A DNA stretch of 64,000 nt, taken from Hemileia vastatrix. Taxonomy: Eukaryota > Basidiomycota > Pucciniomycetes > Pucciniales > Zaghouaniaceae. Position 1 is the stretch's first letter, and each line of letters begins with the position of its first letter. The translations under genes and the position numbers were made by a program. Below the pieces are notes generated by a model that saw nothing but the letters and a program-made list of their open reading frames with translations, ran no database searches and was not told where the DNA came from. This document shows positions 3,581 through 60,224 of the stretch, one piece after another. The DNA lies in assembly GCA_030280995.1 (NCBI GenBank), contig JASXTE010000011.1:4050501-4114500 (forward strand), written 5' to 3'.

Positions 3581-4508
3581 ATGAACTGCCCTACTCCCAC
3601 ACCCACGCCTCCACACCCTAAAGCGGATGGGGGAATAATCACGCGACAGTTTTCACAGACTTGCACGGCTTGTGAAAGCATGGAATATTTCTGTGTCAAA
3701 AGTACGGCAACTCGAGGCCCTCGCCAGAAATGCGAGTTTTGCCGTTGGCGGCGAGTGGCGTGCGATGCGTTGACGAAGAACGCGGAAATCGAAAAACGAT
3801 TTACAAAAACTAAATTTTGGGTAGTTCCGAAGACCAAAGAGGTGGTCAAAGACATTTGGGATGTCTCGATCAAAGATGAACAATCTGTGGGGGAAAATGA
3901 TAAGGAGATGAACAACGAGATCTCAACCTGGGTAACCCAGGCCACGAGTTCAAAGCGAGGTGTCGAGGAAGAGGTTGACGAATTGGTGGAGGAGGATGAA
4001 GATGAAGTCCCTGTTCCAGGGCGGGCACCCAAGAAACGACGGGTGGTCATCGAGCACAATGAGGAAGAGAGAGAGGTAGAAGTCGAAGTGGCGCCCAGGT
4101 TATTTCTGGAGCCTGATCCCATCTTCGAGGTAAGTTTTAATTGTTTTATTTCAAGGATGAAGTTACTGATGAGTTTTGTTTTAGACATCGAATAACCTTG
4201 AAGAGCCGATTGCGGAGCCTGCGCCGGTTATACCAACTGAGGCAAACCCTCCAGCCATGGAAGTAGTTGAAGAGCCCGAAGACACCCTGGACCAGGTGTG
4301 GTCGAAGAAACCTTGTCAAGGTCGACGAGTAAGGTTCGCGGAAGAACTATGTGGGGAGGTCGACGCTATTATTGACGCTGCTTCCTTTGACGTGGCAGAG
4401 GAGCTATTGGAGATGGGAGAGGTGGTTCCGGTAGGAGGGGAGGAGGTGTTTGAGAAATGCAGGAAGGAAATAAGGGTAGTTTTGGAGAAAATGAAAAGAT
4501 TGGTTTGA
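3581..4508 (+). CDS. Antisense accessory gene of element A: Zn2Cys6-like nuclear protein
   Basis: Two exons, 3581-4129 and 4185-4508, are joined in phase 0 across a 55-bp intron (GTAAGT...TTTTAG), giving about 290 residues. The start is the ATG where similarity with the copy in F begins (CPTP...TPPHPK). Residues about 29-56 hold six cysteines spaced CX2CX6CX12CX2CX6C, the spacing of fungal Zn2Cys6 clusters, with a basic second half (CRWRRVAC). An acidic stretch and a nuclear-localisation-like PKKRRVV follow, then a C-terminal helical part with EVVPV and EKCRKEI. The stop TGA replaces a CGA in F, trimming eight residues. A nuclear regulator of the element or host is inferred; a DNA target is unknown. 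Confidence 0.8.
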
Positions 4509-5523
4509 GAGAAGTTAAAAGAAAAGATTTGAAAAGAAAAGGAGATGTGAAGAAAGAAAATTGTATTTTAGTTTTATTTTATTTTTATTTTATTTTATTA
4601 TGATTATTTTTTTATTGTAGGTGAATGTTGTTAATTTTATAAAATTTGAGAGAGAGAGAAAAAGAAGAGAAAAAAAAGAAAAAAAGAAGTTTTAAATAAA
4701 AAATTTTAGAATTTGAAAGAAGAATTTTAAAGAAAGAAAAAAGGTTGTTTTTAATTGAAGGAAGTTTTAGTGTTTTTTTTTTTTTTTTTTTTTTTTAAAA
4801 AAGGAAAATTTTTATGTAAGAAAAGAGAGAGAAAAGAAACAGTTTTGTGATTGAGATGAGTTTGTTAAATTGAGGATTTTAATTTTTTTTTTTTTCTTTT
4901 TTTTTTTTTTAAGAAATTTTAGTTGAAAAGAGATAAAGAAGAAAGAAAAGAAAAAAAAACACAATTTAGAATTTTAAGAGAATTTGAAAAGTAGAATTAT
5001 TTGTTTCGAAGAATTATTATAGGGAGATTTAGAGGTTGAAATTAAGTTCGAGGAAATGGTCGTGTCGTACAAGATTTGATGATTCAAAGGAAAGAAAGTT
5101 TTTTTTTTTTTTAAAAGAGAGAATAAATTTTTTGGAAGAGAAAATTTTCAAGAGAATTTTAAATTTAAGAAAAGAATGTATTTAAAGAATTGAAAAGAAA
5201 AGAAAGAAAATATTTAGAGAGATTTATTTTTATTTTATTATTTATGTTTTATTCTATTTATTTTATTTTATTTTATTTTATTTTATTTAATTTTAATTTT
5301 AATTTTATTTTTTATTTATTTTATTGTATTTAATTTTAATTTTAGTTGGTTTTGGAGGAAATTTTATAGAAAGAAAAGAAGAGAGAAAGAAGAAAACAAG
5401 GCTAAGAAATTTAAGAGGTGTTTTAGATTTTAAAGAAAGAAAGAAAAAGAAAAGAAAATTTTAAATAAAGAAATTTTAAGGTTTTGGTTTTAAAGGATAT
5501 TTCGAATGAAAAGATTTTAGGAG
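4509..5523 (+). repeat. Purine-rich low-complexity tract
   Basis: About 1 kb downstream of the antisense gene is almost purely A/G plus T-runs on the plus strand (AAGAAAGAAAA, GAGAGAGAGA, 20-plus T, TTTTA repeats). There is no reading frame. The equivalent position in F (58355-59215) has the same composition on the corresponding strand, so the RNA of the element is pyrimidine-rich here. Confidence 0.8.
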
Positions 5524-5528
5524 TTCAG

Positions 5529-6301
5529 TGTCACGCGCCACATGACACTTGAAGCAAAATTAACTCAACAAATCAATAATATCGAGTCCTAAATCTATAC
5601 TCGAAGCGCAGAAAGCAATTCTCCATAGCAACTGCGATTTTCCTTTGTGTACTGCTATTTAACTGCGCTAGCCTAAACTCTAAATCTAAATTAGTCAATC
5701 TTCCAATAGGGTACCTTAGTCCTTTTCAATAAGCGACGCACAGCGCTAGGATCAACGAAATAGTATAGTAGTAGTTTTTTCATTAAAGTTTTGTTAATTA
5801 ATTAAAAGGTACAAATTGAGCATGAACGGATATTTAGTAGAGAGGGTCTAAGTGTATGTTAGTAATGGTCAATGGAACGGGAATGCTGTGATGGAAGGGA
5901 GGTCAATGCGAGGAGGAACAAAGGATATAAAAGGAGTTGGGTATTTGGTTCGATATTCCTTAGAATTAAATTATAATATCGTATTTACATTAATAGTGGT
6001 AAATCCTTAAAAGTTAAATCATTGTTATTGTATCTTTCTTTTACCTTCTCAATATTCATTTCTAAATCCTAAATCTTTGATTATTGAGTTTCCAACCCTT
6101 CGTGAGATTTTAAGAATTATTATTACCTTGAAACTAGTTTATAATTCTTCTCGAATCGAACCTCGAACCTATAGCTATTACTTTGAGTGACCTTCGAATC
6201 ATTTCCTCGAATCATTCCTCTGTGCTTCGAAGAAGTTTCTAAAATCCCTCATCTCACTTACAGGAACATCCTCGACCTTGTGCGTAGGTCGTCCGGTGAC
6301 A
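5529..6301 (+). mobile_element. Solo LTR nested in the pol end of element A
   Basis: A 773-bp LTR of the A family in inverted orientation relative to the LTRs of A. It is flanked by TTCAG on both sides (5524-5528 and 6302-6306). Comparison with F, where the sequence runs uninterrupted through CCTGAACTCC, shows the insertion point. No internal sequence is present, so it arose by LTR-LTR recombination or is a lone remnant. It replaces the last residues of the integrase/chromodomain frame with LTR-encoded ones, the frame stopping at 6254. Confidence 0.93.
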
Positions 6302-9300
6302 TTCAGGAGCGTTAGAAACATTGATGGCTGGTTCCCAGGATGTTTTGTCTGAGTCATTTAGGAAGCCTTCCCATTCCACGAGGTATTGAAGTTTCCCCTT
6401 GCGTATTCTTGAATCAAGGATACGACTTACTTCCCACTCTAGAGGATCTTCTACTTCGACCGGTTCCGGAGGGGGTTGGTTCTTGCCCGGGTATATTTCT
6501 CGAGCCAGTTCCAGGAGAGATACATGGAAAACAGGGTGAATCGCCTGCCATTTAGGAGGTAACTTGAGTCGAAATGCAGTTTTAGAGACTTCAGAGTCGA
6601 TTTCGAACGGTCCCAAGAACTTTTCAGCCAGTTTCTTTGATGGTCTTGTTGTTCGGATGTTTCGTGCATCCAGCCATACTTTGTCGCCTGGTTTAAAGGA
6701 AGGAGCAGATTGTGGATGTTTGTTGGCCTGTTCCTTGTATCTTCGAATCGCTGATTCCAAATTTGTTTTAAGTTCTTCTTGGAGTCGTGATATAGTTCGA
6801 AGATAATGTTCCGCAGGATGATTAGTTCCTACATGAATTGAGTTGAATCAAGGATGTCGTCCATAAATGGTTTCGAAGGGAGATTGTCGTGTCGAAGAAT
6901 GAGTCAAGTTATTATAAGCAAATTCGGCCAATGGTAGCCATGTGGTCCAATCGTCTTGTTGGTAACTGACATACATTCAAAGATATTGTTCGAGGATTTG
7001 GTTAACTCTTTCTGTTTGACCATTGGTTTCAGGGTGATAGGCCGTGGAGAGATTCCTCGTGATATTGAGTTGTCGAAACAGTTGGGTCCAGAATGTGGAT
7101 ACAAACAATGAGCCTCTATCTGAAATAATATCATTTGGTAAGCCGTGTTTAGAAAATACATATTCTAGAAACAATTTTGACAAATCTTCTGCTGTAGCAG
7201 TAGTAGTGGTTTTAATAAAAATAGACATTTTTGAAAATCTATCTACTATTACTTATATAGCATCAAAATCATTAGAAATAGGAAGTTGAGAAATGAAATC
7301 CATCGATAAAGATTCCCAAGGTTTAGAGGGAATAGGAAGTGGTTGAAGCAACCCATGCTTCCGGTGACGGGGAGCCTTATTCCTATTACATTCGTAACAA
7401 GCTTTTATATAGGCCTTGATTTCCTTGGTCATACCTGGCCAGAAGAAATCCCTCGCTATTAACTGGTAGGTTTTATCAACCCCAAAATGACCAGCTAACG
7501 GAGAATCATGTCGACTATTGAAAATCCATAATTTTATCTCATTGTTGTCGGGTATGACTACTCTACCTTCGAAGACTAATAGACCTGATTCAATACTAAA
7601 TCTTTTGGCCCCTTTCTTTGAGAGTATTTTGTCTTTTAACCCTAAACAATAATCGTCCTTCGACTGAGCTTCGAGGATGTTGGATAGTGGATTTCGAAAA
7701 GATTGAATTGTCATCGAATTAAGTTGATGAGTCGTTAAAATTGATTCGTTGAAGATTGATTGCACATTTTCTGGGTTCTTGTCAGCAAATGCGTCCCCCC
7801 GCTGTGGGTAAACGTTGTCCCGACGTGACAAGATATCTGGGACAATGCAGTTTTTTCCTGGGAGATAGGAAATAGAGAAAGAAAATTCAGACAAAACTTC
7901 AGCCCACCTGGCTTGACGCCTGGTTAACACTTTAGAAGACATGAAGTATTTCAAAGCATTGTGATCTGTTAAAATTTGAAAAGGACTATCTAGGCTGAGA
8001 AGAAAAGAACGCCATTTTTTAAGACAATGGATAATAGCTAAAAGCTCTTTGTCATGAATTTCATAATTTAATTCCGCGGCTATGAGTTTGCGTGACTCAA
8101 AAGCAACAGGATGAAACAAATTTGTTTCAGGATTTAATTGGGAGATGACCCCTGCAATAGCATAATTGCTCGCATCTGTCTCAACTATTGTCGAGGCAGA
8201 AGGATCAAAATGCCGAAGAATTGGGGCTGTGGTGAACGCCGTTTTTAGTGCTTCGAATTCCTTTCGTGCTGTAGAAGTAAAAACAAAAGGAATATCTTTT
8301 CTAAGAAGAGAAGTAAGATTGGAAATAGTTTTAGAGTAATCTTTAATAAATCTTCTATAGAAGTTTGCAAAACCCAAAAATCCTTGGAGTGATTTAATGT
8401 TTTTGGGCTCAGGCCATTCCAGGATTTTCTGGATTTTTTTATCATCCATGACTAAACCGTCAGTGGACAACGTAAAACCCAAAAAATCAATTGATTTGAG
8501 GTGGAATTCGCATTTATTATGCTTGGCATAGAGACCATGATCTCGAAGACGATTAAGGACCTGTCGAACATGATGAATATGTTCATCAAGTGTTTTCGAG
8601 AAAATTAAAATATCATCTAAATAGGCGACTACAAATTGTTCAACAACATCTTGAAATATATCATTAACAAAAGTTTGAAAAGTTGAAGGTGCGTTACATA
8701 ATCCAAAAGGCATAACTAAATATTCAAAACTACCAAATCTAGTGCGCATTGCAGTCAGTGGTTCATGACCTTCCGCAATGTGAATAAGATTGTAAGCGCC
8801 TCTAAAATCAATTTTAGAAAATAAATTAGCACCATTGAAAAGGGTAAGAAGTAATGACATAGGAGGAACAGGATATGCATTCTTCTTCGTGACTGTGTTG
8901 AGCTTTCTATAGTCAACACACAACCTAAGACTACCATCCTTCTTTTTTACAAAGAGGACAGGGGAGCTGGTTGGAGATTTACTGGTTCTGATGAAACCTT
9001 TGGCTACATTCTCTGCAATGTAGTCTCAAAGAACTTGAGATTCGTCCTTCGATAAAGAATAGACAGGACCTGCCGGAGGTACTGGGCCTATTAACTCTAT
9101 TTGATGGTCGTAGGGTCGATGAGGTGGTAACTTATCGGCCTTGCGGATTGAGAAAACATCGAGGAAATCGTGGTAGATTTCCGGTAGAGTTGATTTGATG
9201 GCTTCAACGTTTATTTGGTCGTCCTCTTCATCTTCGAGAGAATCTGTCGAGGGGATACCTGTATTGAGAGAGCATAATTTGATTACTTCGAGGCAATTTA

Positions 9301-9886
9301 ATTCCTCTTTGAGTGAAGTCATCAAGCTAGAAGGGTTGGCCAATTCCTCATTTAAAGAAGGTACAGATGCTTGCAAGTCATCTGGCAGAGATTTGTCCTC
9401 TAGCAGGACGTTGTCAGACGGGTTGTTTAACTCCCTATTGACCTGCATTGAAGAATCAGAAATATACTTAGAGCATGGGGCGATCAATCCCCTAGTCCAA
9501 TCAATTTCGGGATTCCAATGCGTTAAAAAGTCATGGCCAAGAATGGTATCGTCCATCCTTGGGGCATCCAAGACTGATAATTCCCACTCAAAGGGGGGGG
9601 AATTCGGAAAGTTGAAAACCCATAAAACTTTCTTACTTACCCAATATTTGGGTTCCTCTGATTCGACCAAATAGATGGGAGTTCGATCGATATCTGTAAA
9701 TGTTAGTTGAAGCTTCTCGTCAAAAGATAAACTAACAAAAGAAATTGAAGCTCCAGAGTCTATAAGACAACTGAAGGGGATGTCCTCCTTAAAAAGAATG
9801 AATCTCAAGCGGTTTAAGGCAACTCCAGTCCTTAAGACATGGAGGTTCTGTGCATTGGGAGAGATAAGATAGTTTGCTTTGCACAC
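6254..9886 (-). pseudogene. pol: Element A pol: protease, reverse transcriptase, RNase H, integrase, chromodomain
   Basis: Aspartic protease motif LIDSGAS near 9760; reverse transcriptase with VDYRKLN, FGLCNAP and the catalytic YLDD; RNase H with TDASNYA and DKELLAI; integrase with an HHCC zinc site (CYECNRNK) and the D,D,E core (SMDF, SDRGSLF, YHPETNGQTERV). The end is a chromodomain (EWEVSRILDS, LVEWEGF, SWEP). In-frame stops lie at 9023-9025 (TGA), 7253-7255 (TAA), 6977-6979 (TGA) and near 6850 (TGA). Two of the TGAs stand where F has CGA. The last residues are replaced by the solo LTR. It acts in reverse transcription and integration, but this copy is not functional as one frame. Confidence 0.9.
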
Positions 9887-9900
9887 AAGTAAACTATCTA

Positions 9901-11088
9901 CTAGTTTTTTGACTTCGAACTAGTACCTTCTCTTTCCTTCAACTTTACACAGTCTTCCAACTTGTGCTTACCCCCACAATACATACATAACCCATTATCT
10001 GCTCGTCTCTTCCTCTCAGCTTCTTTAAGTTCCCCTTTAGGATCCAGTACTTTGCTGATATCGCCTGGGGTCGAGCCTTTTGGTCAAGGTTTATCCTTTC
10101 CCTTATTGGGTTTGGATTGAGTCGAGGAGGATTGATTTGGTTGTGGGTGTGAAGAAGGTCCCGATTTAAAATTTTTGCCTTGAGATTTGTTGGCATATCG
10201 ACGATGTTGAAGTCGTCCTTGATAAACGCCGTCAAGTTTGAGGGTTCGATCCATTAAGTCCGTTAAAGTAGTCATCTTCTGACCGTGAAGATTTAATTGA
10301 TCTAGAATCCTCGAAGGAAGTCCTTTCATGAAATGATACTTAAGGGCAGCGTCATTCCAACCTACTCGAGTTTGAAGTGCTCTGAAGTTCGAGATATATT
10401 CAGAAGCTTAATCATTATCACTCATGCGAAGAAAATCAAGTTCAATTTCTGCGTTGTCCGTTTCATTAGGGTCCCCAAACAACGTAAAAAGTTGGTCCTT
10501 GAATTTTTCCCAATTATTGATAAGTAAGTGGGTTTCTGTCGAGGAAAGCATGAGTAGATAAGGTTTGAACCATCTTGCTGCTTTTCCAGCTAGGAATGAA
10601 GAAGCGTAAACAACCTTTGATCGGTCGCTGTTAAAGGTTCGAGGATCATTATGGAACAGTAGCTTGCAGGTTTGCAAGAAGGGTCGCAATCTGTCGGGGT
10701 GATCTCCGTCGAATTTGTCAGGAGATTTCATAGAAGGAGTTTTGAACTTAGATCCCTCTGAAGACGTTGGATTTGAAAAGGTTTTCATAAAAAGTCTCAT
10801 GAAATCTTCCAGAGAGTTAGATGGTCCCGGTTCTGAGGATTGGCCAGAAGGGTGATTGGCAGGGGCGGATGGTGCCTCATGCATTGTATCCTCTCCTTCT
10901 TCTTCATCACTAGAATCCTCAAAATCTTGTGGAATGTCTTCTACAGATTGAACTGAATGTTTCCATTCCCTAAGGTTGAGTGGTTCCAAAGAGTGAGTGC
11001 GAGAAACAGACCTTGTGGCTGTTGGCCTGCCACTAGCGCGAGCTCTAGTAGTAGCGCCCGTAGGAGGAGTGCGTTGAACAGGTGCCAT
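9901..11088 (-). pseudogene. gag: Element A gag
   Basis: Starts at the ATG at 11088, shortly after the 5' LTR. It has an N-terminal Ser/Glu-rich part, the retrotransposon gag core (ARWFKPYL, LFTLFGD, DQLNLHGQ) and a zinc knuckle CMYCGGKHKLEDC, and ends at TAG 9901-9903. Stops interrupt it at 10408-10410 (TAA, F has a sense codon) and 10081-10083 (TGA, shared with F). The size of about 395 codons is normal for short-gag Ty3 elements. It would form the particle shell that packages the RNA. Confidence 0.88.
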
Positions 11089-11144
11089 TTAAGTTTTTAG
11101 AAACACCTAAAAGGACGTAGTAGTGCAAAGAATGAGAACTACGG

Positions 11145-11158: not shown

Positions 11159-11159
11159 C

Positions 11160-11933
11160 TGTCACCGGACGACCTACGCACAAGGTCGAGGATGTTCCTG
11201 TAAGTGAGATGAGGGATTTTAGAAACTTCTTCGAAGCACAGAGGAATGATTCGAGGAAATGATTCAAAGGTCACTCAAAGTAATAGCTATAGGTTCGAGG
11301 TTCGATCGAGAAGAATTATAAACTAGTTCCAAGGTAATAATAATTCTTAAAATCTCACGAAGGGTTGGTAACTCAATAATCAAAGATTTAGGATTTAGAA
11401 ATGAATATTTGAGGAGGTAAAAGAAAGATACAATAACAATGATTTAACTTTTAAGGATTTTCCACTATTAATGTAAATACGATATTATAATTTAATTCTA
11501 AGGAATATCGAACCAAATACCCAACCCCTTTTATATCCTTTGTTCCTCCTCGCATTGACCTCCCTTCCATCGCAGCATTCCCATTCCATTGACCATTACT
11601 AACATACACTTAGACCCTCTTCACTAAATATCCGTCCATGCTCAATTTACCCCTTCTTAATTAATTAACAAAACTTTAATGAAAAACTACTACTGTAATA
11701 TTTCGTTGAACCTAGCGCTGTGCGTCGCTTATTGAAAAGGACTAAGGTACCCCATTGGGAGATTGACTAATTTAGATTTAGAGTTTAGGCTAGCGCAGTT
11801 AAATAGTAATTACACAAAGGAAAATCGCAGTTGCTATGGAGAATTGCTTTCTGCGCTTCGAGTATAGATTTAGGACTCAATATTATTGATTTAATGAGTT
11901 GATTTCGCCTCGAGTGTCACGTGGCGCGTGACA
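11160..11933 (-). repeat. 5' LTR of element A
   Basis: 774 bp, ends TGTCAC/GTGACA. Contains a TATA box (TATAAAA, 11529-11535 on the minus strand) and the RNA start region at about 11499. Its U3 tip is palindromic: TGTCACG, five bases, CGTGACA (11915-11933). Flanked outside by TTCCC. Confidence 0.93.
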
Positions 11934-18707: not shown

Positions 18708-19805
18708 TGGTAAGGTAAACTCTTACAGTCGCCTTGCTGTAAGCAGAATCCAGAGGAGATATGTGGATTTAGCTGAAAACCCCGTCCTTCCAATAAAAAT
18801 AACAAAATGAGAATTCTAAATCACTAAGCTAACCAGTCTACTTAGATCTGATTGATAAAATAATGAAACTCTAAAATAATTAACGCTTATTGAGATTTTA
18901 ATAAAAGTGGCTGTTGAGAAAGAAATACTGATAACAACAATTAAGGTGTACCAGTGAAAGATCTGAAAAGATTGACTTTTATGTTTTTATAATAATTTGA
19001 ATTTTTATGAGACAGCAATAATCAAGTCCCAGTGAAGAAGACCTTTCTAAAGATACCCTGTATGAAGTGTGATTTAAATTGTTGAGTAGTATTTCTAAAA
19101 TTTTATATATAAAATATAAAGTTATAAGGGTATTATAATTTATTTACTTTGTTGAGTAATAAAAAATAAGACCGTGGTGGTTAAAGATTAAGCTGTATGA
19201 TGTGTCCCCCCTCTCTCAATTTTGAGTTTGAGAGGAGCTTAAGTATTCCTAGTCATGTGCCTAAGTTTTCCCCTCCAGAGCTCTCCCAGAGTCAATCCGG
19301 AGCCCGTACGGAGTCCGTACGGAGTCCGTCCGGACTTCCGGACTCAATTAGAACCTTAAAAACTATAATAAAAAATCTAGAAAAATTACACATGATAGAG
19401 CTACTTCCCCTTTATATTCCAAACTAATTTTCGTAGTCTGTGCAGCTCTAATTACCCCGTGAAAATTCATCAAAGTTAAGTAATTTCTGAAAATGTAAAT
19501 ATTTCTATAAAACTTTAAAATTCATTTAAAAATATAAGAAAAATAGTAAAAATTCTGGGAAAATTTCCCAAGGTTCTTGAGTGACTCCACTTGATACTTA
19601 TAAATTTTTCAGACCGTAAAAATAAGTTTTCTCCATAAAATAATTTTTTTTTGTGTAGGCATTTGCTTGTGACCAATTTCTTCATATTTTAAACTCAAAT
19701 AAATTAAATAAAACCCTTTTATATAAAAATAATAACACCAATCTTACACGCCGTAATAACTCCATTTACGTACTTAGGTGCCATACTAAACTTTAGGCTA
19801 CCACA
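18708..19805 (-). repeat. 3' LTR of element C
   Basis: Direct repeat of 30154-31262. A possible minus-strand TATA (TATATAAAAGGG) lies at 19714-19725. At 19297-19346 it holds a CpG-dense cluster of near repeats of GGAGTCCGTAC ending in CCGGACTTCCGGACTC. Confidence 0.92.
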
Positions 19806-19928: not shown

Positions 19929-20619
19929 ATGTCTTCCAAAGAACTTGTTGCTCCATGTGAGCTCTGCGCTCAATACCAGGTACCTTGTTTAATGTCCAAC
20001 CCTAATCTTCCTGGCAGGACAGCTTGCGACTTATGCCGTGTGAAAAAAGTCAAATGTAACCGGCCAATAGTTCCTTCTAAAACAAACGTATATTTAGGAC
20101 CAGCAGCTCTCCCTGATCCCTCAACTTCTAAAAAGCAATCAAAAATTCCTGTCTTCTTAAAACGAATAAGATCAAAAGCAGCTTCAAAAGTTCAATCTTC
20201 ATCAGCGGATCCTGGCCTTATTTTGCCTTCACAAGATCCTAATCCTATAACGCCAGTGCCCCCAACCAACTTTGCTGAGACTATGTTTCCTGGCTCTAAA
20301 TGTAAGACCCTATTATCTTACTAAAAAACTTTTAATCAAAATTGACTAAACCTATGACTTAATAACATATTTGAACTTCTAGCTGTCGAAATAATCCAAC
20401 ACTGATGATGTTGGTAGAGTGAAGACGGACTATATCAATCATTATCCAAATTTTCATCGCTATCTTTTTCTTGACTTTACTAATGAGTTGAAACGAAAAA
20501 TGCTGGCCTATTTTCAAGAAACTCCAGCTAATAACCATGAAGACCTTATGAAAAGAAGAATTTTAATGCAAAGCTTTGATAATGATGTTGAACAATTTCA
20601 AAGAAATTATCTTTTCTAA
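19929..20619 (+). CDS. Antisense accessory gene of element C: Zn2Cys6-like protein
   Basis: Exons 19929-20301 and 20420-20619 (573 nt in total, 190 residues) join in frame across a 118-bp intron with GTAAGA donor and GTAGAG acceptor. The acceptor choice is inferred from the frame. Residues about 10-37 carry CELC, C, CDLC, C with spacing CX2CX6CX12CX2CX6C and a basic second half (CRVKKVKC). A Pro/Ser linker follows, then a helical C-terminus with LAYFQETPA, MKRRILMQSF and VEQF, related to genes in D and at 129-798. It lies opposite to gag-pol, 120 bp from the polypurine tract. All six cysteines and both splice sites are intact. A DNA-binding role is inferred from the cluster only. Confidence 0.75.
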
Positions 20620-21205: not shown

Positions 21206-22030
21206 CCAGTTTAGAGTCTTAGTGGACAGTGATAAATTAAAAGATTGAATTGAGTTATCCAAACAAGATTGACATTCCAGTTTAAAGTCTTGGTGGACCA
21301 AACATATAATTGATTGCCAGTTTATGGTCTTGGTGGACCAAAGATTGTTTAGGTGCATAAATAACTTAAAATATTCCTAAATAAGGCCTAGGCTTGACCA
21401 AAGATTGAATAAACTTGATAATCCAGTTTAATGTCATAGTGGACCAAACATTTGATCGACAGGTAATCCAGTATAAGGCCATAGTGAACCAATGAATGTT
21501 GAATTATCCTGCAGATATTAATTTTCCAGTTTAAAGTCATAGTGGACTAAACAATGAATGAACTACCAGTTTAAAGTCATGGTGGACCAAACATTTGATC
21601 GATAAGAAATCCAGTTTAAGGTCATTGTGGACCCAACAGCTTGATAATAGTCCAGTTTAGGGTCTTGGTGGACCTAACATTTGATAACACTCCAGTTTAA
21701 GGTCTTGGTGGACCTAACATTTGATTGATAAAAAAAATAAAAAAAAATCTGTCTCCAAAAATATCCATAAAATCTTGAACATCCTTGAAATTCAGTTTAA
21801 ATTCTTGAAGGACTAACAGCTTCAATATAAAATCTTTAATGAAAGTCTTGAATTTTAGCCAGTTTAAAGTCTTGGAGGACTAACAGCTCCAAAATTCGTA
21901 TAAAAACCTTAAGGAAAGTCTTGAGCAGTACCCAGTTTAAAGTCTTGGAGGACTAACAGATCCAAAATACGTGTAAAAAAACCTTAAAGAATGTCTTGAA
22001 CAGTAGCCAGTTTAAAGTCTTGGAGGACCA
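21206..22030 (-). repeat. Array of about 14 hairpin modules in element C
   Basis: Units start with (C)CAGTTTA and continue with a short inverted repeat around a loop such as TTGGTG. Positions: 21206, 21277, 21317, 21423, 21468, 21526, 21566, 21611, 21652, 21692, 21792, 21859, 21932, 22007. Stems include TGGTC/GACCA (21317), AGGTC/GACCT (21692), GGTC/GACC (21611) and AGTC/GACT (21859), so bases change in pairs. Spacers are irregular, 17 to 78 nt. The array is in the 3' untranslated RNA of the element. Confidence 0.85.
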
Positions 22031-22129
22031 ACAGATATCTTGAAGTAAAATCCCATAAGTATTGAGTTCCCCTAGACCCTGTTTCCTGTCTAAACTATAT
22101 GAATAAAACTAAAAAGAATGAAAACTAAA

Positions 22130-31944: not shown

Positions 31945-33015
31945 ACATGCTACCTTACAAGTTGCTAAATATATCAGCTGTCTAGATGGTAATAAAGTAT
32001 ATCACCAGGTACCTGTTTAGAAGAATTCCCAGAATTTTCTGCTCATTTCTACTCATATGGGTATTTATAAGTATTTTAGGATGCCATTTGGCCCAAAAAT
32101 GCCCATTCAGTTTTTCAAAAAGTTATGGATAACACATTCCATAAAAAATAGTTGAAGGATGGCTGATGGTTTACACCTATGATATTATCATATTCTCTAA
32201 ATAATTTGAGGACCATCTTCACCACCTATGTAAAGTGTTCCATAAGATGGATGAGATAAATATGAAACTCGCTTTGAAAAAATGCAAATTTTGTTTTCAT
32301 TCCTTGAAAGTTCCTGCTCATGTTGTCTCAGGTTTGCAGATATGTGTTGACCAGAACAAAGTGGCAGCTATACAATAGGTGAAAGCTTCTACTACAGTTA
32401 GAGAGCTCAAGAGTTTTTTGGAAACGGGTGGATACTATAGACAGTATATTAAAAATTATTAGGTCATAGCATTACCCCTTACCCTATTAACTAGAAAAGA
32501 TGTTACTTTTGTCTGGAACAGTGAAAGACAAAGAGATTTTGACACTATGAAAAATTGTTTGATGTCAGCCCCAATTCTTTCTTTTCCTGACTTTAATCAA
32601 ATGTTTTTTCTATTCACTGATTCCAGTTTTATTGGTTTGGTGCCCCCCTCCATCAAAATAAGTCTTGAATGATAGAGTATCAGAAGTAGTAATTTTTTAT
32701 ATCCTGAGAACCTTGAGAAATAGTGAATTCAAATATGCTTCCACTTAACTGGAACTTTTATCAGTAGTATGGGCTCTAAAGAACCTATATTATTATCTGA
32801 ATGACCAAAAATTTGAACTTGTCACTGACTGCAGTGCTGTACAATCTCTCTTGAACTTGAAGATAACTAACAGACATATGTTCAGATGTCAGATAGCTGT
32901 ACAGGAATACAGAGGGAGGATGGAAATAATTTATAGGGCTAGTATTGTTCACTCAAATGTGGATATGTTAACAAGGTTACCTTTGCTAAATGATGAATCA
33001 AATCCTGCTTATTAA
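31945..33015 (+). pseudogene. Degenerate third-lineage gypsy reverse transcriptase and RNase H
   Basis: Broken frames still show LDGNKVYHQVP, THMGIYKYFRMPFGPKNA, KLALKKCKF, RELKSFLETGGYYRQYI, LTRKDVTFVWN and an RNase H-like TDCSAVQSLL. Stops and shifts are frequent. The sequence is unlike A and unlike B/C/D, so it is a separate, older lineage. It begins where the B LTR ends, which suggests B inserted into it. Confidence 0.75.
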
Positions 33016-34015: not shown

Positions 34016-36240
34016 ATGAATTTTATTTCAAGATTTCAAAACTCACCAACCCCCACAACTTTTCAGCAAGGACATTTGAATGTTCATATTTTTGGACTAT
34101 TTGAAGAAAGAAAACCAACCCTTGTCGGTAATCTTTCTCAAGTGCAGAGTCAGCACATTGGACCACTATTGGGTGAAATTGGGACTGTATCTCACAATTT
34201 AAACCAAAGAAGTGCCTTGAATCCTATGAAGCCATTCTATTTTCATGCTTACTTGGTTCCAGTTTTTGGTAATCAGTATCAACTTTGGGGATGTCTCTTT
34301 TCTTCAAGAACACTAATCAGTCTTGCTAAAGAAGCATTTTCTTCTGCTCAAATCAATTTATGTGTGATCTTGAACTACGACTCCACTATCTTTTTTAATA
34401 TCCCGCATGTAATGTTTGAAGGCTCTTTCCAAACATCTCAGAGTACTCAAGATTGGAAAGCTGATCAACTTATCCAAGGAGTAAAAACAGCTCTCAAAAC
34501 ACATCAACTTCAAGCAATAAATTTTATGATTGACAGTGAAAAAATGTTAAAGGAAATGTTGGATATCATGTGGAGGCACCAGGAAAACCATTGACTTAGA
34601 ACTGGATTTGATGACTATAAAGATCAGTTTCCTAGAAATAAATTAACCCCTGAAGGAGACGGGCCAATACTCGCTGATGATATGGGTTTGGGAAAGATGC
34701 TGTCAACTCCTTCTCTTATAAGTGCAACTCAAAGTGAATCAAGACAATTCCAGGTATCTGAAAATCAAGAAGGTATTAAATGGAGTTCAGCCACACTCAT
34801 TATATGCCCACTGGCAACAGTATCGAATTGCATCAATGAAATAAGTGTGCACTTTGAAGATAATGTGCTTCTTTGCAAGGTTCTTTATGGGAAAGATTTT
34901 CAAAATACTAACCTCAATGAGCTACAGGACACTGCTATTGTTTTAACGACCTATGAACAGCTAGCCCAACAATGTCAAAAAATTAAAGCCAAAAAAAGAT
35001 ACTGGTGACTCAAAAGCTCTTTTGGTATAGAGTTGTTTTAGATGAAGCTCAGTTAGTGCCCAATTTTATATCTAAATCTTAAAACTTAATTTTCATAATC
35101 AATTTTTATAAATATTCTTTTAGTTACATTAAAAATCCTTACTTGCAGAGGGCTCAAACAATATTTGACTTGGAATCCCAATACCAACTATGCTTGACTA
35201 GAACTCCACTTCAGAACAGGCCAACTGACCTTCAAAGTTTCATATTTTTTCTTAGAATTGAAAAGTGGCAAGAAGACTGGTTATGGAAGAATTTCCTTTT
35301 TCCAGGTTTGCAAAAAGGAAAGGCTAATTCTATTAAATCAATCAATCACTTAATGAAAGTCATAAGCCTACGTAGAGCAAAAGATGCAATTTTGTCTCTT
35401 CCAAAAAATATTCAAAGGGGGATATCAATTCAATTAGCAGATCCATGGAGGTCTAAACTTGATGTGCTTCAAGAAGGATTAACTGAGCAATATGGGCTCT
35501 CCAGAAGCACTGACCTCCCTTGGGACTCATCTGAGTTTCTTAGAGAGCTGATGATTTTAAGAAAATTCTGCAACCATCTAATCTACAAAAATCTGGATAA
35601 AACTCCAGCTTTTGGTTTCACCTGGCAGCATTCCACAAAGATTTGTCATCTTTTAGGCCACTTGAAAAACTTTTTGTCTGGTGAAAGGGGCATAAATTTT
35701 CTGAAAGCTGTTATATTCTCAAACTTTGAAGACTTTTTGCAGATATTAGTGATTCTATAATGAATTTTTTTACAAAACTTTGTAGGCTTATTAAAAACAA
35801 TTTTCTAATATTTCAAAATAGAATAAAAATCGCTCTAGATGATCACAATATTAGGTATACCTAGTATATGGGTGAACCCAGCAGGACAAAGCAAGACAAA
35901 AATATGCATGAATTCCATTTTAATAAAAATTGCCAAGTTTTGGTTGGAACAATTCAGGCTGCAGGAGTGGGTATAGATCTCAAGTGTGCTCAAAATGTAT
36001 ATATAGTGGTGAGCTCAATGTCTTATATTTCATATTAAGAACAAAAATATTAAATTTTTTATATCTTCAATGTTGAAATAGAAGCTGAATTGGAATCCAG
36101 CAGTTGAGCAGCAGGCTGTTGATTGGCTGTATAGAATGGGGCAGCAAAATGAAGTAAATGTTTTGAATTATTTTGTGCATGGAAGTGTAGAATTCAGCAT
36201 GTATAAGATTCAAAGGAAAAAAATGCAGCTACCATTTTAA
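34016..36240 (+). pseudogene. Decayed SNF2-family ATPase
   Basis: Motifs in order: Walker A ILADDMGLGKM (34670-34700; the usual T after GK is M), VLDEAQ where the family has DEAH (about 35040), LTRTPLQN where it has LTGTPLQN, SLRRAKDAILSLP, then helicase C-terminal VIFSNFEDFL, QAAGVGIDLKCAQN and WNPAVEQQAVDWLYRMGQ. A good intron (36009-36081, GTGAGC...AAATAG) splits the last two in frame. Defects are TGA 34592-34594, a shift near 35008 and a TAG near 35860. The layout is like the Rad5/Rad16/HLTF group, but no RING finger is seen. It may be a relict host gene or cargo of the neighbouring DNA transposon. Confidence 0.75.
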
Positions 36241-41184: not shown

Positions 41185-41793
41185 ATGGGTCCTTGCCAAT
41201 ACTGCATTGACAATAATCTAATCTGCACCATCACACCTCCTGTCCATCCATACAGAACGTCCTGTGATGTCTTCCAAACCAGAAAGAAGACCTGCTACAG
41301 ACCTGGTCCATTATCTCCTGCAACAGCTTCACCTCCACCTCAACCTAGTGCATCTTCTATCAGCACCAAAAGATCTGGGCCATCCATCTTGATTCCCAGA
41401 TTAATCAAAAATCTACACCCTTCCCAGAAGAGTGCCAAAACCACTAAAACAACAAGTTCCACCATCCCTGGTCCATCTAATGGTAAAAACTTCCATTTCT
41501 TCTTTCCACTTTATAAAACGGATGACTTCTCAGTTCCTTCATCTTCTGACAGTGATAATAACAATGTAGGATCCATTGAACCAACAACACCAAACCACTT
41601 GACCACCATTAAGGCCAAGTTCCAACAAAACACGTCTCAACAGAAAAAACTTCTGCTAAACTACTTCCAATCCACTCCTGCTAGAGATCCACAGGACATT
41701 GAGAACAGAAGACACCTCATTCACCAGTTTTAGGCTAACTCTGAACAATTCATTTCATCTCTTGATTCCCTGTGTAATTCCACTAGTACTTGA
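41185..41793 (+). pseudogene. First antisense accessory gene of element D, zinc-cluster type
   Basis: Starts at ATG 41185, 72 bp from the polypurine tract. The cluster reads CQYC, C after six, then CDV with the fifth cysteine changed to Phe, then C: CX2CX6CX12C, two residues, F, six residues, C. A Ser/Pro-rich linker contains a likely 51-nt intron (GTAAAA...TCTCAG, neutral for the frame). The C-terminus LLNYFQSTPA, ENRRHLIHQF, then EQF resembles the end of the gene in C (LAYFQETPA, KRRILMQSF, VEQF). A TAG follows HQF. The lost cysteine and the stop indicate loss of function. Confidence 0.7.
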
Positions 41794-42376: not shown

Positions 42377-43878
42377 ATGGCTGAATCCCCTGATGTTGAC
42401 CTCTCTAATCTTCCTTGCTTCACTGCTCCCAAGGACTATTCCTTCAAACAGTGCATCCACATGTGCAGACCTTGCACATTCACTCTTCAAACTCCTGAAG
42501 CCACATTCTACAACAGGGCCTGTGATTCTTGCTACTCCAAAAAGAAGAACTGTGACAAGGATGCCAACTATCTTATTCCTCCTCCTTCACCTTCTCATAA
42601 ATACCTCTCCAGATCCCCTACCAGATCCCCAGAGCTTGGTCCAGCCTCTTCATCTTTATCCTCAGCACCATCCAGAAGATCCCGGAACTCAGTTTCCAGA
42701 ACTCTTTCAAAAAGGCCTGCTTTAACTTCCCAAGAAACAGCTTTTATCTCTGCTAAATTAGCTCCAAAAGCTTAAAAATCAGCTCCTAGGCTTCTAGACC
42801 ACGTCCAGGCGGCCCTCCCGCCTCACTAGACAGTGAAAATCAAGCTGAAAACCTCCAAAAACAATGAGAAAACAGCCAAATTCCTCCAATAAACAAAAAC
42901 AACTCCACGCAGCCACCTCCCACTGCTCCCAGAGCAATGCAGCCAACCTCTCCAAGGTCCGAAAACTCCACAATTTCACAAATTTCTAGGAGACCTTCCA
43001 GAGGACCCCAGGAAGAAACCAGAGCACCCAACACCGCACCCAAGCAACAACTTTGCCCCCAATTAAGGCAACGAAACTACACCTCTCCTCTGTCATCCAA
43101 CTATTCTTCTGACAGTTCCATTCCTTCAAAAGAATCATCCAGAAGAGATCAATCCGCTTCCAGATCAACCTCTCCTTCCCCATCTTATAAAAACCCTGGT
43201 ACGCCATCACCAGCACCTCATCCAACTGAATCAAGCAGAAATATTAACAACACCAACAACATACCTGCTACTCCAACTAGGCCCCAGGAACATCAGCCTC
43301 CTAGTTCACCTTCCTCAAACCTTTCAGAGGAAGACCAAGAGAATCCATATCTTTCCCTGATTAATCCACCTACTATCACCATTCCAAAATCTTCAAAAGT
43401 CCTAATTCTTGCCGCTTACAAATTTGATGAGCTTCCAAACTGTAAGTACCACATTAATTCATTCAATTTCTTCAACAAAAAAAATTACTGATCCAATTCT
43501 TCTTGTCTAGTTGGCACCCTTCCTCCTGAATCTACTATTGGAGTTTGCCAACCTCTAGAAACTTCTTTAACCCTGGATTATGGAGACATGAAACAACACC
43601 TCAGCACCATGTGTTCAAACATGCTGAAAGCCTTTGCCCTCCATGGACCTTTAAATGACTTTGAGAAAAACTTTAGGAAACAACTATTGGACGACCACTG
43701 GAAGATGTCTAGGATCATTAAGCACACCTTCAAACAATCCATTCCTGCCTCTTCTTCTTCCTCTTCTAAACTTCCATCCAAACCCATTCCTGCCCATTAT
43801 AATCCATATAATCTCTCCAGCAGGATGCACTTCAAAGAACACAGTGCTTCCCACAACCCCAACAAAAAACAAAAATGA
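42377..43878 (+). pseudogene. Second antisense accessory gene of element D
   Basis: From ATG 42377 the frame has CRPC, a Pro where the third cysteine is expected, then CDSC, six residues and C with a basic YSKKKN segment. A long Ser/Pro/Arg linker follows. The first frame stops at 42773; a second frame, 42937-43441, continues the linker. It joins in frame, across a 69-bp intron (43442-43510, GTAAGT...GTCTAG), to 43511-43878. This last exon has KAFALHGPLNDFEKNFRKQL, related to the C-terminal motif of the family. One frame change and the altered cluster suggest decay or divergence. It is larger than the first gene and not a recent copy of it. Confidence 0.62.
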
Positions 43879-52808: not shown

Positions 52809-53470
52809 ATTCTTCAACCTAAATTAGTCAATCTCTCAATAGTGTGTGTCAGTCTTTTCCTCAATAAGCGACGCACAGCGCAATAGTCAATGTAATATTA
52901 TGCTAAAAGGTTTTTTAAATGTCTGTGGATTATTTTAAGGGGTAGTGAGAATGGACAGAATGGATAGTGGAGGATTAAAGGGTTGACGGATGTTAGTGAG
53001 GAGGGTCCAAGTGTAACCAGTGTATTTTTAAATGGTCTGTGGTGTGTGGAATAGTGGATGGGTATGAGGTCAATGGGAGGAAGAGTAAAGGATATAAAAG
53101 GGGTTGGGTTTTTGGTTCGGCATTCTTTAGAATTAAATTATAAAACGTATATATAGTTAATAGTGGTAAAAAAATTGGTTAAATCATTATTATTGTATCT
53201 TTCCTTATTTTCTCAGTAATCATTTCTAAATCCTAAATCTTTGATTATTGAGTTTCCAACCCTTTGTGAGATTTTAAGAATTTTAACATTACCTTTAAAT
53301 TATATTAAAATTCTTCTCAAACATATCTCAAAGCAGTAGCTTTTCACTCGAGTCATCTTTGAATCACTTCCACAAAGATTTCCTCTGTGCATAGAAGAAG
53401 TTTCTAAACTCCTCCCTCCATCTCACTTCCAGAGACACCCTTGACCTTGTGCGTAGGTCTTCCGGTGACA
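52809..53470 (+). repeat. 5' LTR of element F, truncated
   Basis: Begins inside the LTR at CTAAATTAGTCAATC; about 170 bp including the TGTCAC end are missing at the junction with D. TATA box 53093-53099, RNA start region AGAATTAAATTATA 53129-53142. The primer site TATAATTTAATTCT follows at 53472-53485 and is its exact complement. Confidence 0.88.
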
Positions 53471-53545
53471 GTATAATTTAATTCTCCATAGTTCTCATTC
53501 TTTGTACTACTACATCCTTTTTCAGGTGTTTTCTAAATTCTTAAA

Positions 53546-54733
53546 ATGGCACCTGTTCAATGCACTTCTACTACAGGCACTACTACTAGAGCTTGCGCCA
53601 GAGGCAGGCCAACAGCCACACGGCCTGTTTCCCGCACCCACTCCTTGGAACCACTTGACCTAATGGAACGGCAGCATTCAGTCCAATCTGTAGAAGACAT
53701 CCCACAAGATTTTGATGATTCTAGTGATGATGAAGAAGCAGAGAATACAATGCACAAGGCACCATCCGCCCCTACTACTCACCATTCTGGTGAACCTTCG
53801 GAACCTGGACCATCTAATTCTCTGGAGGACTTCATGAGACTTTTCATGAAGACCCTTTCCAATACAAAGTCTTCAGAGGGATCTAAATTCAGAACTCCTT
53901 CCATGAAATCTCCCAATAAATTTGATTGAGAACATCCAGACAGATTGGGGCCCTTCTTTCAAACCTGAAAGCTCCTGTTCCATAATGACCCTCAAACCTT
54001 CAATAAAAACCAATCAAAGGTTGTTTATGCTTCTTCATTACTAGCCAGGAAATCAGCAAGATGGTTCGAGCCTTATCTTCTCATGCTCTCTTCAACAGAA
54101 ACCCACTTACTTATTAATAACTGGGAAAAGTTCGAAGACCAACTCTTCACGTTGTTTGGTGACCGTAATGAAACTGACAACGCAGAAATTGAACTTGATT
54201 TTCTTTGCATGAGTGATAATGGTAAAGCCTCTGAATATATCTCAAACTTCAGAGCACTTCAAACTCGAGTAGGTTGGAATGATGCTGCCCTCAAATATCA
54301 TTTCAAAAAAGGACTTCTTTTGAGGATTCTGGATCAGTTAAATCTTCACGGTCAGAAGATGACTACTTTAACGGATTTAATGGATTAGAGCCTCGAACTT
54401 GACGGTGTTTACCAAGGATGACTTCAACATCTTTGATACACAAACAAATCTCAAGGCCTAAATTTTAAATCGGGACCTTCTTCACACACACGGACAACTC
54501 GATCCTCCTCGACTCAATCCAAACCCAATAAGGGAAAGGACAAACCTTGACCTAAAAGCTCAACCCCAGGCAATATAAGCAAAATACTGGATCCATAAGG
54601 GGAACTTAAAGAAGCTGAGAGGAAGAGATGAGCAGAGAATGGGTTATGTATGTATTTTGGGGGTAAGAACAAGCTGGAAGATTGTGTAAAGTTGAAGAAA
54701 AGAGAAGGTACTAGTTCAAAGTCAAAAAACTAG
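53546..54733 (+). pseudogene. gag: Element F gag
   Basis: Starts MAPVQCTSTTG, matching A. A TGA after NKFD (53927-53929), where A has GGA, and further stops follow. The core (ARWFEPYL, LFTLFGD, DQLNLHGQ) is recognisable. The TGA after GKDKP is shared with A. The zinc knuckle region is degraded. Confidence 0.87.
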
Positions 54734-54747
54734 TAGATAGTTTACTT

Positions 54748-57700: not shown

Positions 57701-58354
57701 TTGGCCAAATTGGCTTATAATAACTCAACTCATTCTTTGACACAACAATCTCCTTTCAAAACTGTTTATGGAAGACATCCTCGATTCAACTCAATCCATG
57801 TAGGAACTAATCATCCTGCAGAACATTATCTTCAAACCATATCACAACTCCAAGAGTAACTTAAATCAAATTTGGAATTAGCAATTCGAAGGTACAAGGA
57901 TCAGGCCGACAAACATCGACAATCAGCTCCTTCTTTCAAGCCAGGTGACAAAGTATGGCTCGACGCACGAAAAATTTGAACAACTTGACCATCAAAGAAA
58001 CTGGCTGAAAAACTCTTAGGACCATTCGAAATTGACTCTGAAGTCTCTAAAACTGCATTTCGACTCAAGCTACCTCCCAAATGGCAGGCTATTCACCCTG
58101 TTTTCCACGTATCTCTCCTGGAACTGGCTCAAGAAACATACCCAGGCAAGAACCAACCTCCTCCAGAACCGGTTGAAGTAGAAGACTATCTAGAGTGGGA
58201 AGTAAGCCGTATCCTTGATTCAAGAATGCGCAAGGGGAAACTTCAATACCTCGTGGAATGGGAAGGCTTCCATGATGATTCAGGCAAAACATCCTGGGAT
58301 CCAGCCATCAATGTTTCTAACACCCCTGAACTCCTAAAATTTTTTTCATCTTAA
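54748..58354 (+). pseudogene. pol: Element F pol with chromodomain
   Basis: Protease LIDSGAS, reverse transcriptase VDYRKLK and YLDD, RNase H TDASNYA, integrase core (SMDF, SDRGSLF) and chromodomain (EWEVSRIL, LVEWEGF, SWDP), ending NTPELLKFFSS at TAA 58352-58354. This gives the natural pol end that element A has lost to its solo LTR. Stops include TAA in the protease-reverse transcriptase linker (54972-54974), the TGA after QVL shared with A, and several later ones. Not functional. Confidence 0.9.
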
Positions 58355-59215
58355 ATATCCTTTAAAACCAAAACCTTAAAACTCACTTTTATTTTTTCTC
58401 TTCTTTATCTTTTTTTATTTTCTGTTTCTTAAAATTCTAAAACTTCTTCTCTTTAAAATCTAAAATACCTTTACCTCTAAAAAATTTCCTTATTTTCTTT
58501 TCTTCTTCTTTCTTTTTTTTCAAAAAAAAGTTTTCAACCTTCTTCAAAAATAAAAAAAATTAAGTTGAAATTAAATTAAATTAAATTAAATTTAAATTAA
58601 ATTAAAATTAAAATTAAATTAAAAAAAATAAAAAAATAAAATAAAATAAAAATCTTAAAAAACAATAAATTCCTTTAAATTTTCTTTTCTCTTTTCTTTA
58701 TTTCTTTATCTTCAAACTATAAAAATTTTCCACAAACTCAATACGACAATCTTTCTCAAACTTCACTTCAACCTTTAAATCTCTCTGTTAAAATTCTTAA
58801 AACAAATTACTTCTTTCTTTCAAATTCTTTTCTTCTCTTCTTTTCTTCTTTCTTTTCAAATAACCAAAATTCCTCAAAACTTCAATAAATGAACTTTCAC
58901 AAATAACAATTTTTTTTCATTAAATTTCCATGTCAAACAAAATTATTTCAATCAACTATTTCTTTTTTTCTTACTTAAATTTTTCTTTTCAAAATTTAAA
59001 CTAAAATTCCTTCAATTAAATATTCTTTCTTTTCTTCTTTCAAAATTTAAAACAAAATTTTATTTAAATCTTTTTCTTTCTTTTCTTTTTCTCTCAAAAT
59101 ATTATAAAAATAAATATTAAAATTTTAAATAAAATAACAAAATAAAAATAACTAAATATACAAATTGTTTCTACTTTTCTTTCCTCTTTCTTTCTTTTCC
59201 TTTTTTCCTTCCATT
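58355..59215 (-). repeat. Pyrimidine-rich tract of element F
   Basis: C/T-rich on the plus strand (TTCTTTTCTTCTTT type) with an AAATTAAATT repeat. It corresponds in place and strand to the purine tract 4509-5523 of A. No gene. Confidence 0.8.
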
Positions 59216-60224
59216 TTAAATTCTCTCCTTTATTTTCTCTCGAACCAATCCCTTCACCTTCTCCAAAATCACCCTTATTTCTTCCCTACATTTCTCAAAA
59301 ACCTCCTCCTCTCCTACCGGTACCACTTCCCCAATTTCCAGTAATTCTTCGGCCACGTCGAAGGAGGCAGCATCGACAATCTTATTGACTTCATTGCTTA
59401 AATCTTCAATAAACCTAGCTCGTTGACCCTGGCAAGGTTTTCCCAACCATACCTGGTCAAGAGTCTCTTCATTATCCTCCCTTGAGGCAATCACTGGTAA
59501 ATGTTCTTTGGTAGGGATCAACGGCGCCACCCCAACAATGGCCACTTCCACAGCAGTGGTTTCCACAATAGGAGCTCCCACACTTGAGGCTTCCGTGATG
59601 ACATCGAAATTCTAATTCATACGGTCATCAGTAATATTTTTCTTTGTAAAATAAAATTAAAGTAAAATAAAATAAAAGCAAACTTACTTCGAACATCTGA
59701 TCAGCCTCTAGAAATAACTTCGATGTGACTTCCACTGGCACTTCTTTTTCTTCTTTGTCATCTTTGATGACCATCCGCCGCTTCTTTGGCGTCCGCCTTG
59801 AAATGGGGACTTCCTCCTCATCTTCCTCCACCTCCTATTCTACCCTTTGCTTTTTACCATTGGCTTGGGTTACCCAGGTCACCATGGTGTCTTCAACTTC
59901 CTCCTCGGCTGCTTCTGTTTGATCATCCCCAATCAACACGTCCCATATGTCTTCGACCACTTCTTTGGTCTTTGGTATTACCCAATATTTTGTCTTGGTA
60001 AACCTTTGTTTGATGTCAGAGTTTTTTGCTAAAGCATCGCACGCCACCCGTCTCCATCGGCAAAACTTGCATTTCTGGTGAGGACCTCGAGTAGCCATGC
60101 TTTCAACACAAAAGTATTCCATCGTTTCACAAGCTGTGCATGCTTGGGAATACTGTCGGGTAATGAGCCCACCATCCACTTTGGGGTGAGGAGGCGTGGG
60201 AGCTGGAGTTGGACAAGTTGACAT
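59216..60224 (-). pseudogene. Antisense accessory gene of element F
   Basis: Exon 1 60224-59688 and exon 2 59611-59216 join in phase 0 across a 76-bp intron with GTAAGT donor at the same codon as in A and acceptor GAATTAG. About 310 codons. The cluster CTAC, C, CKFC, C keeps the CX2CX6CX12CX2CX6C spacing and a basic CRWRRVAC half. The linker keeps an acidic run and PKKRR. The C-terminus keeps EVVPV and EKCREEI and runs on to KERI. The only defect seen is TAG at 59835-59837 in the acidic run. While gag and pol of F are heavily broken, this frame is nearly clean, which hints at longer selection or a lower hit rate. Confidence 0.8.

What the first reader, a model, noticed from the sequence alone, without database searches (positions are those of the whole stretch)
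3581..60224. Antisense Zn2Cys6-like accessory genes in five retroelements of two lineages
A (3581-4508), F (59216-60224), C (19929-20619), D (41185-41793 and 42377-43878) and B (1302-2097, and probably 129-798) all carry, between pol and the 3' LTR and opposite to it, a gene for a protein with six cysteines at CX2CX6CX12CX2CX6C or a worn version of it. It is followed by a disordered linker and a C-terminal helical motif (EVVPV or QETPA, then a basic RR or KCR, then M or EQF). The spacing is identical in A, F and C although their pol genes belong to different lineages. Antisense regulators are known in retroviruses (HTLV-1 HBZ), but I know of no described fungal Ty3 family with a zinc-cluster antisense gene. 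Repression or activation of the LTR, or of host genes, is a natural hypothesis.
Basis: partly seen in the sequence, partly recalled or inferred. Interest (0 to 1): 0.92.

Follow-up and report, generated by a model that had tools for sequence, protein, structure and literature searches.

The report
Antisense zinc-cluster genes in fungal retrotransposons
Jumping genes of two different lineages in a large, probably fungal genome carry on their opposite strand a conserved, apparently spliced gene for a small protein that resembles gene-switch proteins, which suggests that these elements encode a regulator of their own.

Summary
In A and F a two-exon gene lies opposite to pol, between pol and the 3' LTR, at the stated coordinates. 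It is coding sequence: A versus F gives dN/dS 0.126, against 0.47-1.45 in 500 neutral simulations. The window's own genome (748 Mb) holds many copies. In the 50 A-type copies examined, exon 1 is 549 nt in 50, splice signals are kept, and 31 genes are open throughout.

The strict six-cysteine motif occurs three times in the window (A, C, F) and never in 200 random windows. It matches Gal4-type Zn2Cys6 domains with the two halves in swapped order.

Corrections: one B gene has no cluster; the D and B1 clusters are worn; B's 3' LTR is outside the window; the A-to-C link is moderate. A fungal Ty3 antisense gene (brtn of Boty) and plant ones (Grande, Retand) are already known.

Best reading: a new fungal variant of the antisense accessory gene, encoding a nuclear DNA-binding regulator, probably of the element's own LTR. 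That last step is inferred; no transcript or binding data were available.

The parts
2710..3471 (-). 3' LTR of element A (TGTCAC...GTGACA)
   Evidence: pair with 11160-11933; target duplication TTCCC on both sides of A
3480..3489 (+). TATA-like GGTATAAAAA, antisense, about 10 nt past the inner edge of the 3' LTR
   Evidence: sequence; kept in F; TATA-type pattern in 35 of 50 copies; promoter function not tested
3581..4129 (+). A antisense gene, exon 1: six-Cys cluster (3662-3763), acidic linker, PKKRRV putative nuclear signal
4130..4184 (+). A predicted intron, GTAAGT / CTGAT / TAG
4185..4508 (+). A antisense gene, exon 2: C-terminal part (EVVPV...KCRKEI)
6302..11088 (-). A gag-pol (chromodomain lineage), broken into several frames
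59688..60224 (-). F antisense gene, exon 1 (six-Cys cluster 60039-60140; one in-frame stop)
59216..59611 (-). F antisense gene, exon 2
19929..20301 (+). C antisense gene, exon 1 (six-Cys cluster 19956-20057; PF00172 match)
20395..20619 (+). C antisense gene, C-terminal part (QETPA...KRR)
41185..41793 (+). D gene 1, 5 of 6 cluster cysteines, one late stop, no intron seen
42377..43878 (+). D gene 2, worn cluster, several stops; predicted intron 43442-43510
129..798 (+). B gene 0: exons 129-272 and 337-798, open; A-like C-terminal part, no zinc cluster
1302..2097 (+). B gene 1: worn cluster, stops; N-terminal part resembles D gene 2

Best explanation
Ty3-type retrotransposons of two lineages in this genome carry an element-encoded antisense gene on the 3' LTR side of pol. 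It is transcribed from the inner edge of the 3' LTR back towards pol, spliced once, and translated into a small protein with a Zn2Cys6-like cluster whose two halves are in swapped order, a linker (acidic with a PKKRR signal in the A type) and a C-terminal helical part. Shown: gene structure, conserved splice signals, purifying selection, copy number, cluster likeness. Inferred: antisense transcription and splicing, nuclear entry, DNA binding. Most likely role: a trans-acting regulator of transcription from the element's own LTRs. Likelihoods: real protein-coding gene about 0.97; nuclear DNA-binding protein about 0.8; acts on its own LTRs about 0.5.
For: A/F dN/dS 0.126 in the antisense frame; the other five frames 0.27-2.02 with more stops; neutral simulation 0.47-1.45, with 8.2 stops on average (at least 2) against 1. 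Variants shared by at least 4 of 51 copies give omega 0.14, singletons 0.45 (Fisher P 0.00024): selection acts between rounds of transposition and relaxes after insertion. Of 50 copies: exon 1 549 nt in 50; donor GTAAGT 49 and GTGAGT 1; acceptor TAG 50; branch block 48; six-Cys pattern 48; ATG 48; gene open from ATG through at least 100 codons of exon 2 in 31. An antisense intron is not removed from the sense RNA that is reverse-transcribed, so its upkeep fits an antisense transcript. Pol on the opposite strand beside it in 20 of 20 long copies. C type exon 1: 150 matches in 150 scored candidates, 149 without stops. Cluster. TATA-like element at the LTR edge.
Confidence: 0.55

Rival explanations
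1. The antisense protein is a nuclear DNA-binding factor that serves something other than the element's own LTR promoter: integration-site choice, anti-silencing or host gene control.
For: Same protein evidence. A, F and D LTRs show no clear CGG enrichment.
Against: No host target is known. The CGG/CCG cluster in the C LTR (11 overlapping triplets within 45 bp) favours own-LTR action for C. Steady linkage of gene and element (20 of 20) fits both readings.
Confidence: 0.25
2. What is selected is antisense RNA (or double-stranded RNA made with the sense transcript); the reading frame matters little.
For: Position and orientation fit; small-RNA roles of fungal retrotransposons are described in PMC8365987 (passages seen).
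Against: Codon-position diversity 0.039/0.023/0.107, omega 0.13-0.14, Cys pattern in 48 of 50: selection sees the protein.
Confidence: 0.06
3. The frame is a by-product of a sense-strand gene on the pol strand (the 210-aa ORF 3556-4188, minus).
For: The minus frame is open in 34 of 51 copies (39 of 51 for the antisense frame, exon 1) and has omega 0.22 among shared variants.
Against: Discriminating changes: 0 of 149 versus 4 of 74; for A/F omega 0.27 with 1 and 5 stops against 0.126 with 0 and 1; a conserved intron signal set follows on the antisense strand.
Confidence: 0.02
4. The two lineages captured unrelated zinc-cluster genes independently, so the shared cluster is convergence, not one accessory family.
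For: hhalign probability only 7% (P 0.0048) between the A/F and C/D1 profiles; most cross-lineage pairs did not pass z 4; C-terminal parts share 3 invariant columns.
Against: Identical 2-6-12-2-6 spacing, the same swapped half order, the same place and orientation, and a predicted intron ahead of the C-terminal part in A, F, B0, C and D2; B0 brings an A-like C-terminal part into the other pol lineage (A-B0 z 6.0; F-B0 did not pass).
Confidence: 0.3

Closest known systems
brtn, antisense gene of Boty-like Ty3 elements in Botrytis cinerea (Zhao et al. 2011)
   Different: BRTN's sequence and domains could not be seen here (paper not held), so kinship is untested; its host is an ascomycete (recalled).
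Antisense additional ORFs (aORF-3R) of plant Ty3 elements: Grande gene23, Retand, RIRE2
   Same: Antisense, between pol and 3' LTR, conserved in most copies; Grande protein nuclear, with a promoter upstream of gene23; TRP28 of Retand predicted to bind DNA; tandem repeats in the same region in about half of the elements (PMC7264820, PMC11963269: passages seen). C here also has tandem repeats there.
   Different: No TRP28 (PF04195) match in the four accessory sequences scanned; a zinc cluster instead; a predicted intron.
Gal4-type Zn2Cys6 transcription factors (PF00172; PPR1, LAC9, GAL4)
   Same: Six cysteines with allowed spacings, a basic CX2C-containing half (in C, CDLCRVKKVKC), a short helix after each CX2C in the model.
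   Different: The basic half comes second, not first; small protein; gene belongs to a transposon.
HTLV-1 HBZ
   Same: Antisense retroelement gene for a nuclear regulator (PMC11963269, PMC7264820 passages; start in the 3' LTR and splicing partly recalled).
   Different: No bZIP match in the four accessory sequences scanned; different host and element type.

Membership tests
Zn2Cys6 binuclear cluster (PF00172) | Six cysteines CX2CX6CX5-12CX2CX6-8C (pattern recalled) | tested here: met
   A, C, F exact; 48 of 50 genomic A-type copies; D1 5 of 6, D2 and B1 worn, B0 none
Zn2Cys6 binuclear cluster (PF00172) | Score above the curated Pfam cut-off | tested here: inconclusive
   C 23.6 bits (cut-off 21) but over profile positions 1-15 only; D1 11.9 bits; A and D2 not reported; F, B0, B1 not scanned
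Zn2Cys6 binuclear cluster (PF00172) | Basic half first, plain half second | tested here: not met
   A profile of five clusters matches PPR1 and LAC9 as two stretches in swapped order; C 31-45 to profile 1-15, D1 3-19 to profile 18-35, the latter weak
Zn2Cys6 binuclear cluster (PF00172) | Zn2Cys6 fold | tested here: inconclusive
Zn2Cys6 binuclear cluster (PF00172) | Sequence-specific DNA binding | not testable with these tools
   Needs an experiment; CGG triplets clustered only in the C LTRs
Antisense additional ORF of Ty3 elements (aORF-3R) | Antisense, between pol and 3' LTR | tested here: met
   A, F, C, D in the window; B antisense but its 3' LTR is outside the window; 20 of 20 long copies have pol on the opposite strand
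Antisense additional ORF of Ty3 elements (aORF-3R) | Kept in many copies under selection | tested here: met
   A type: 268 matches, exons counted apart, from 135 scored of 10314 candidates; C type exon 1: 150 matches from 150 scored of 8810; omega 0.14 among shared variants. B and D types not counted
Retand TRP28 antisense proteins | TRP28 domain (PF04195) | tested here: not met
   No PF04195 match at E <= 1 in A, C exon 1, D1, D2 N-part; F and the B genes not scanned
brtn of Boty | Sequence homology to BRTN | not tested
   BRTN sequence not held
HBZ-like antisense proteins | bZIP domain | tested here: not met
   No bZIP among the Pfam matches of A, C exon 1, D1 and D2 N-part

The most novel reading that the evidence does not exclude
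A transposon-borne class of transcription factors with a circularly permuted Zn2Cys6 cluster, encoded antisense from the LTR edge, exchanged between Ty3 lineages as a module, and controlling the LTRs (and through the many dispersed LTRs, host genes) of a giant fungal genome.
Probability: 0.4. Interest if true: 0.86.

Novelty: new variant of a known kind. Interest (0 to 1): 0.72.

Why it matters
Antisense accessory genes of plant Ty3 elements have been described since the 1990s (references in PMC7264820) with no settled function. Here is a fungal counterpart whose protein carries a recognisable DNA-binding-type cluster, whose selection can be measured on many copies, and which occurs in two pol lineages. 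It gives a concrete hypothesis, an element-encoded zinc-cluster regulator, that RNA-seq could test at once, and it bears on how retrotransposons came to fill a 748-Mb genome. The swapped half order would be an unusual zinc cluster in its own right.

Tried and rejected
Searches that gave nothing: 5.8 billion proteins with the spliced A protein (1581 candidates, none at E <= 1) and with a five-sequence alignment (4567 candidates, none). The same database holds rust-fungus and other fungal proteins (pol control), so this absence means not annotated there or too diverged, not absent from fungi. IMG/VR with A RT, A exon 1 and C exon 1: none; an alignment query was too variable. Genome searches with B gene 0 did not complete and D1 was not searched, so copy numbers of the B and D types are unknown. 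The C-terminal model was poor (pLDDT 53.5) and was not compared with folds. PMC3411680 (Laccaria transposons) holds none of the five words sought.

Considered and rejected: sense-coding by-product; chance motif; RNA-only function; a CGG-rich target in all LTRs. Left open: accessory dS 1.68 against pol dS 0.29 for A/F, and accessory dS above pol dS in 128 of 136 pairs, point to exchange of the 3' module, but a higher mutation rate there was not excluded. All 50 introns of the examined copies are multiples of 3 nt while those of A (55) and F (76) are not; probably the frame-bound search favours such copies, so this sample is not random.

Full report
What is there. Element A is a complete insertion (LTRs 2710-3471 and 11160-11933; target duplication TTCCC) inside element B; a solo LTR (5529-6301, target duplication TTCAG, opposite orientation) sits in the end of its pol. 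On the strand opposite to pol, next to the 3' LTR, lies a gene of two exons, 3581-4129 and 4185-4508. Element F, on the other strand, has the same gene at 60224-59688 and 59611-59216 with one in-frame stop. Both predicted introns are phase 0, start GTAAGT, hold TTACTGATGA and end in TAG.

Is it coding. A against F: dN 0.212, dS 1.68, omega 0.126; the other five frames give 0.27 to 2.02 and more stops. In 500 neutral simulations from the A sequence, omega was 0.47-1.45 (mean 0.80), and stops were 8.2 on average and 2 at least, against 1 seen. The strict six-cysteine pattern is found three times in the window's six frames, each time in these genes, and 0 times in 200 random windows.

The genome. 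The window lies in G000, 747.6 Mb in 791 contigs. Among the 120 pol relatives listed, those with fungal names are mostly from the rust Austropuccinia psidii at about 46-63% identity, so the host is probably a rust fungus, but it is unnamed. The A protein gave 268 matches, exons counted apart, from 135 scored of 10314 candidates, a lower bound. I examined 50 copies: L001-L030 with short flanks and L031-L050 with 9.5 kb. Exon 1 is 549 nt in 50 of 50; it has no stop in 38; ATG in 48; donor GTAAGT in 49 and GTGAGT in 1; the branch block in 48; acceptor TAG in 50; six-Cys pattern in 48; PKKRR in 35; TATA-type pattern in 35; 31 genes are open from ATG through at least 100 codons of exon 2. Intron length varies from 54 to 78 nt. 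In the intron, diversity is near zero at the donor and the branch block and high between them and at the T-run before the acceptor. In exon 1, diversity by codon position is 0.039, 0.023 and 0.107.

Selection between copies. Variants shared by at least four of 51 sequences (A and the 50 copies): 50 synonymous, 25 replacement, 1 stop (omega 0.14). Singletons: 47, 71, 5 (omega 0.45) (Fisher P 0.00024). This is what a gene needed for transposition leaves behind: constraint between rounds, decay after landing. The sample was picked by likeness to A, so replacement singletons are undercounted. One opposing frame also looks constrained (0.22) and is open in 34 of 51, as overlapping wobble positions would give; changes that separate the two frames favour the antisense frame, 0 of 149 against 4 of 74 (P 0.011). 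In 136 pairs of 17 sequences, accessory omega was 0.15 and pol omega 0.38, a contrast helped by the way the copies were picked; accessory dS exceeded pol dS in 128. Together with dS 1.68 against 0.29 for A/F, the 3' module seems to have a history of its own, most simply by recombination. Pol lies on the opposite strand in 20 of 20 long copies, full length in 16 (only that strand was searched).

The second lineage. B, C and D form a lineage whose RT is about 26-27% identical to that of A; the printed frames of the C and D pol ends show no chromodomain by eye, while F has one by Pfam. C exon 1 has 150 matches from 150 scored of 8810 candidates, 149 without stops, many with the same score. In two fetched copies (L051, L052) the two exons can be read in one frame across the same splice sites; the window copy carries a frame lesion. 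D gene 1 is like C over its length (z 20.3) but has lost one cysteine. B gene 0 (129-272, 337-798) is open, shares the C-terminal part with A (z 6.0; with F it did not pass z 4) and has no cluster. D gene 2 and B gene 1 are worn and resemble each other in their N-terminal parts (z 5.9). Whether the two types are one family is moderately supported: z 6.1 for A and C, 4.1 for F and C, hhalign P 0.0048 with probability 7%.

The cluster. C exon 1 passes the Pfam Zn_clus cut-off, but only residues 31-45 match, to profile positions 1-15; D1 residues 3-19 match profile 18-35 weakly. A profile of five clusters finds PPR1 (E 0.0018) and LAC9 (E 0.002), each as two stretches in swapped order; 11 of the 12 sequences listed are Zn2Cys6 proteins. 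The model puts a short helix after each CX2C, and the 22 Foldseek matches are all Zn2Cys6 proteins, weak one by one (the family of some chains is recalled). Since the fold is nearly two-fold symmetric (recalled), swapped order could be a true circular permutation or a shift of the basic residues from one half to the other; the data do not separate these.

How it may work. A TATA-like element about 10 nt past the LTR edge, kept in F and in 35 of 50 copies, would start an antisense transcript that runs towards pol, is spliced and makes the protein. The A-type protein has an acidic linker with a PKKRR signal. By likeness to Zn2Cys6 factors it should bind DNA; by likeness to plant Grande and Retand antisense proteins and to HBZ (PMC7264820, PMC11963269, passages seen) it may regulate the element. 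In the C 3' LTR, 11 overlapping CGG/CCG triplets lie within 45 bp (8 remain in the 5' LTR), upstream of a TATA-like stretch seen by eye; A, F and D LTRs show nothing of the kind. So own-LTR action is plausible for C and open for A.

Known or new. [quoted passage not shown] What I did not find in print is a zinc-cluster one, or one in rust-like genomes (searches; open-licence PMC papers only, listings seen). I file it as a new variant of a known kind.

Noticed in passing
about 19297-19341: The C 3' LTR holds a dense array of CGG/CCG triplets (CGGAGTCCGTA repeats), upstream of a TATA-like stretch; partly decayed in the other LTR.
   Followed up: partly
3472-3490, 60304-60321: A and F have no polypurine tract next to the 3' LTR (sense ...TATACCCGGGCATC|TGTCAC), whereas C and D have GGAGGGAGGA|TGTGGT. 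Plus-strand priming of the A/F family is unexplained.
   Followed up: no
5529-6301: Solo LTR in opposite orientation with target duplication TTCAG cuts the chromodomain end of the A pol.
   Followed up: yes
L001-L050: All 50 antisense introns are multiples of 3 nt (54-78) although those of A (55) and F (76) are not; probably search bias.
   Followed up: partly
21396-22036: Tandem repeats between the C antisense gene and pol, as described for plant Retand elements (PMC11963269 passages).
   Followed up: no
32148-33003 and 35143-35757: Fragments resembling another Ty3 pol and a SNF2-related domain ORF between elements C and D.
   Followed up: no
window:7256-8920 as query; P0001-P0003, P0012: Among the best pol matches are proteins annotated in frog genomes (46-56% identity) beside rust proteins: contamination or horizontal transfer.
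   Followed up: no
62540-64000: LTR and start of another D-family element on the + strand, cut by the window end.
   Followed up: no
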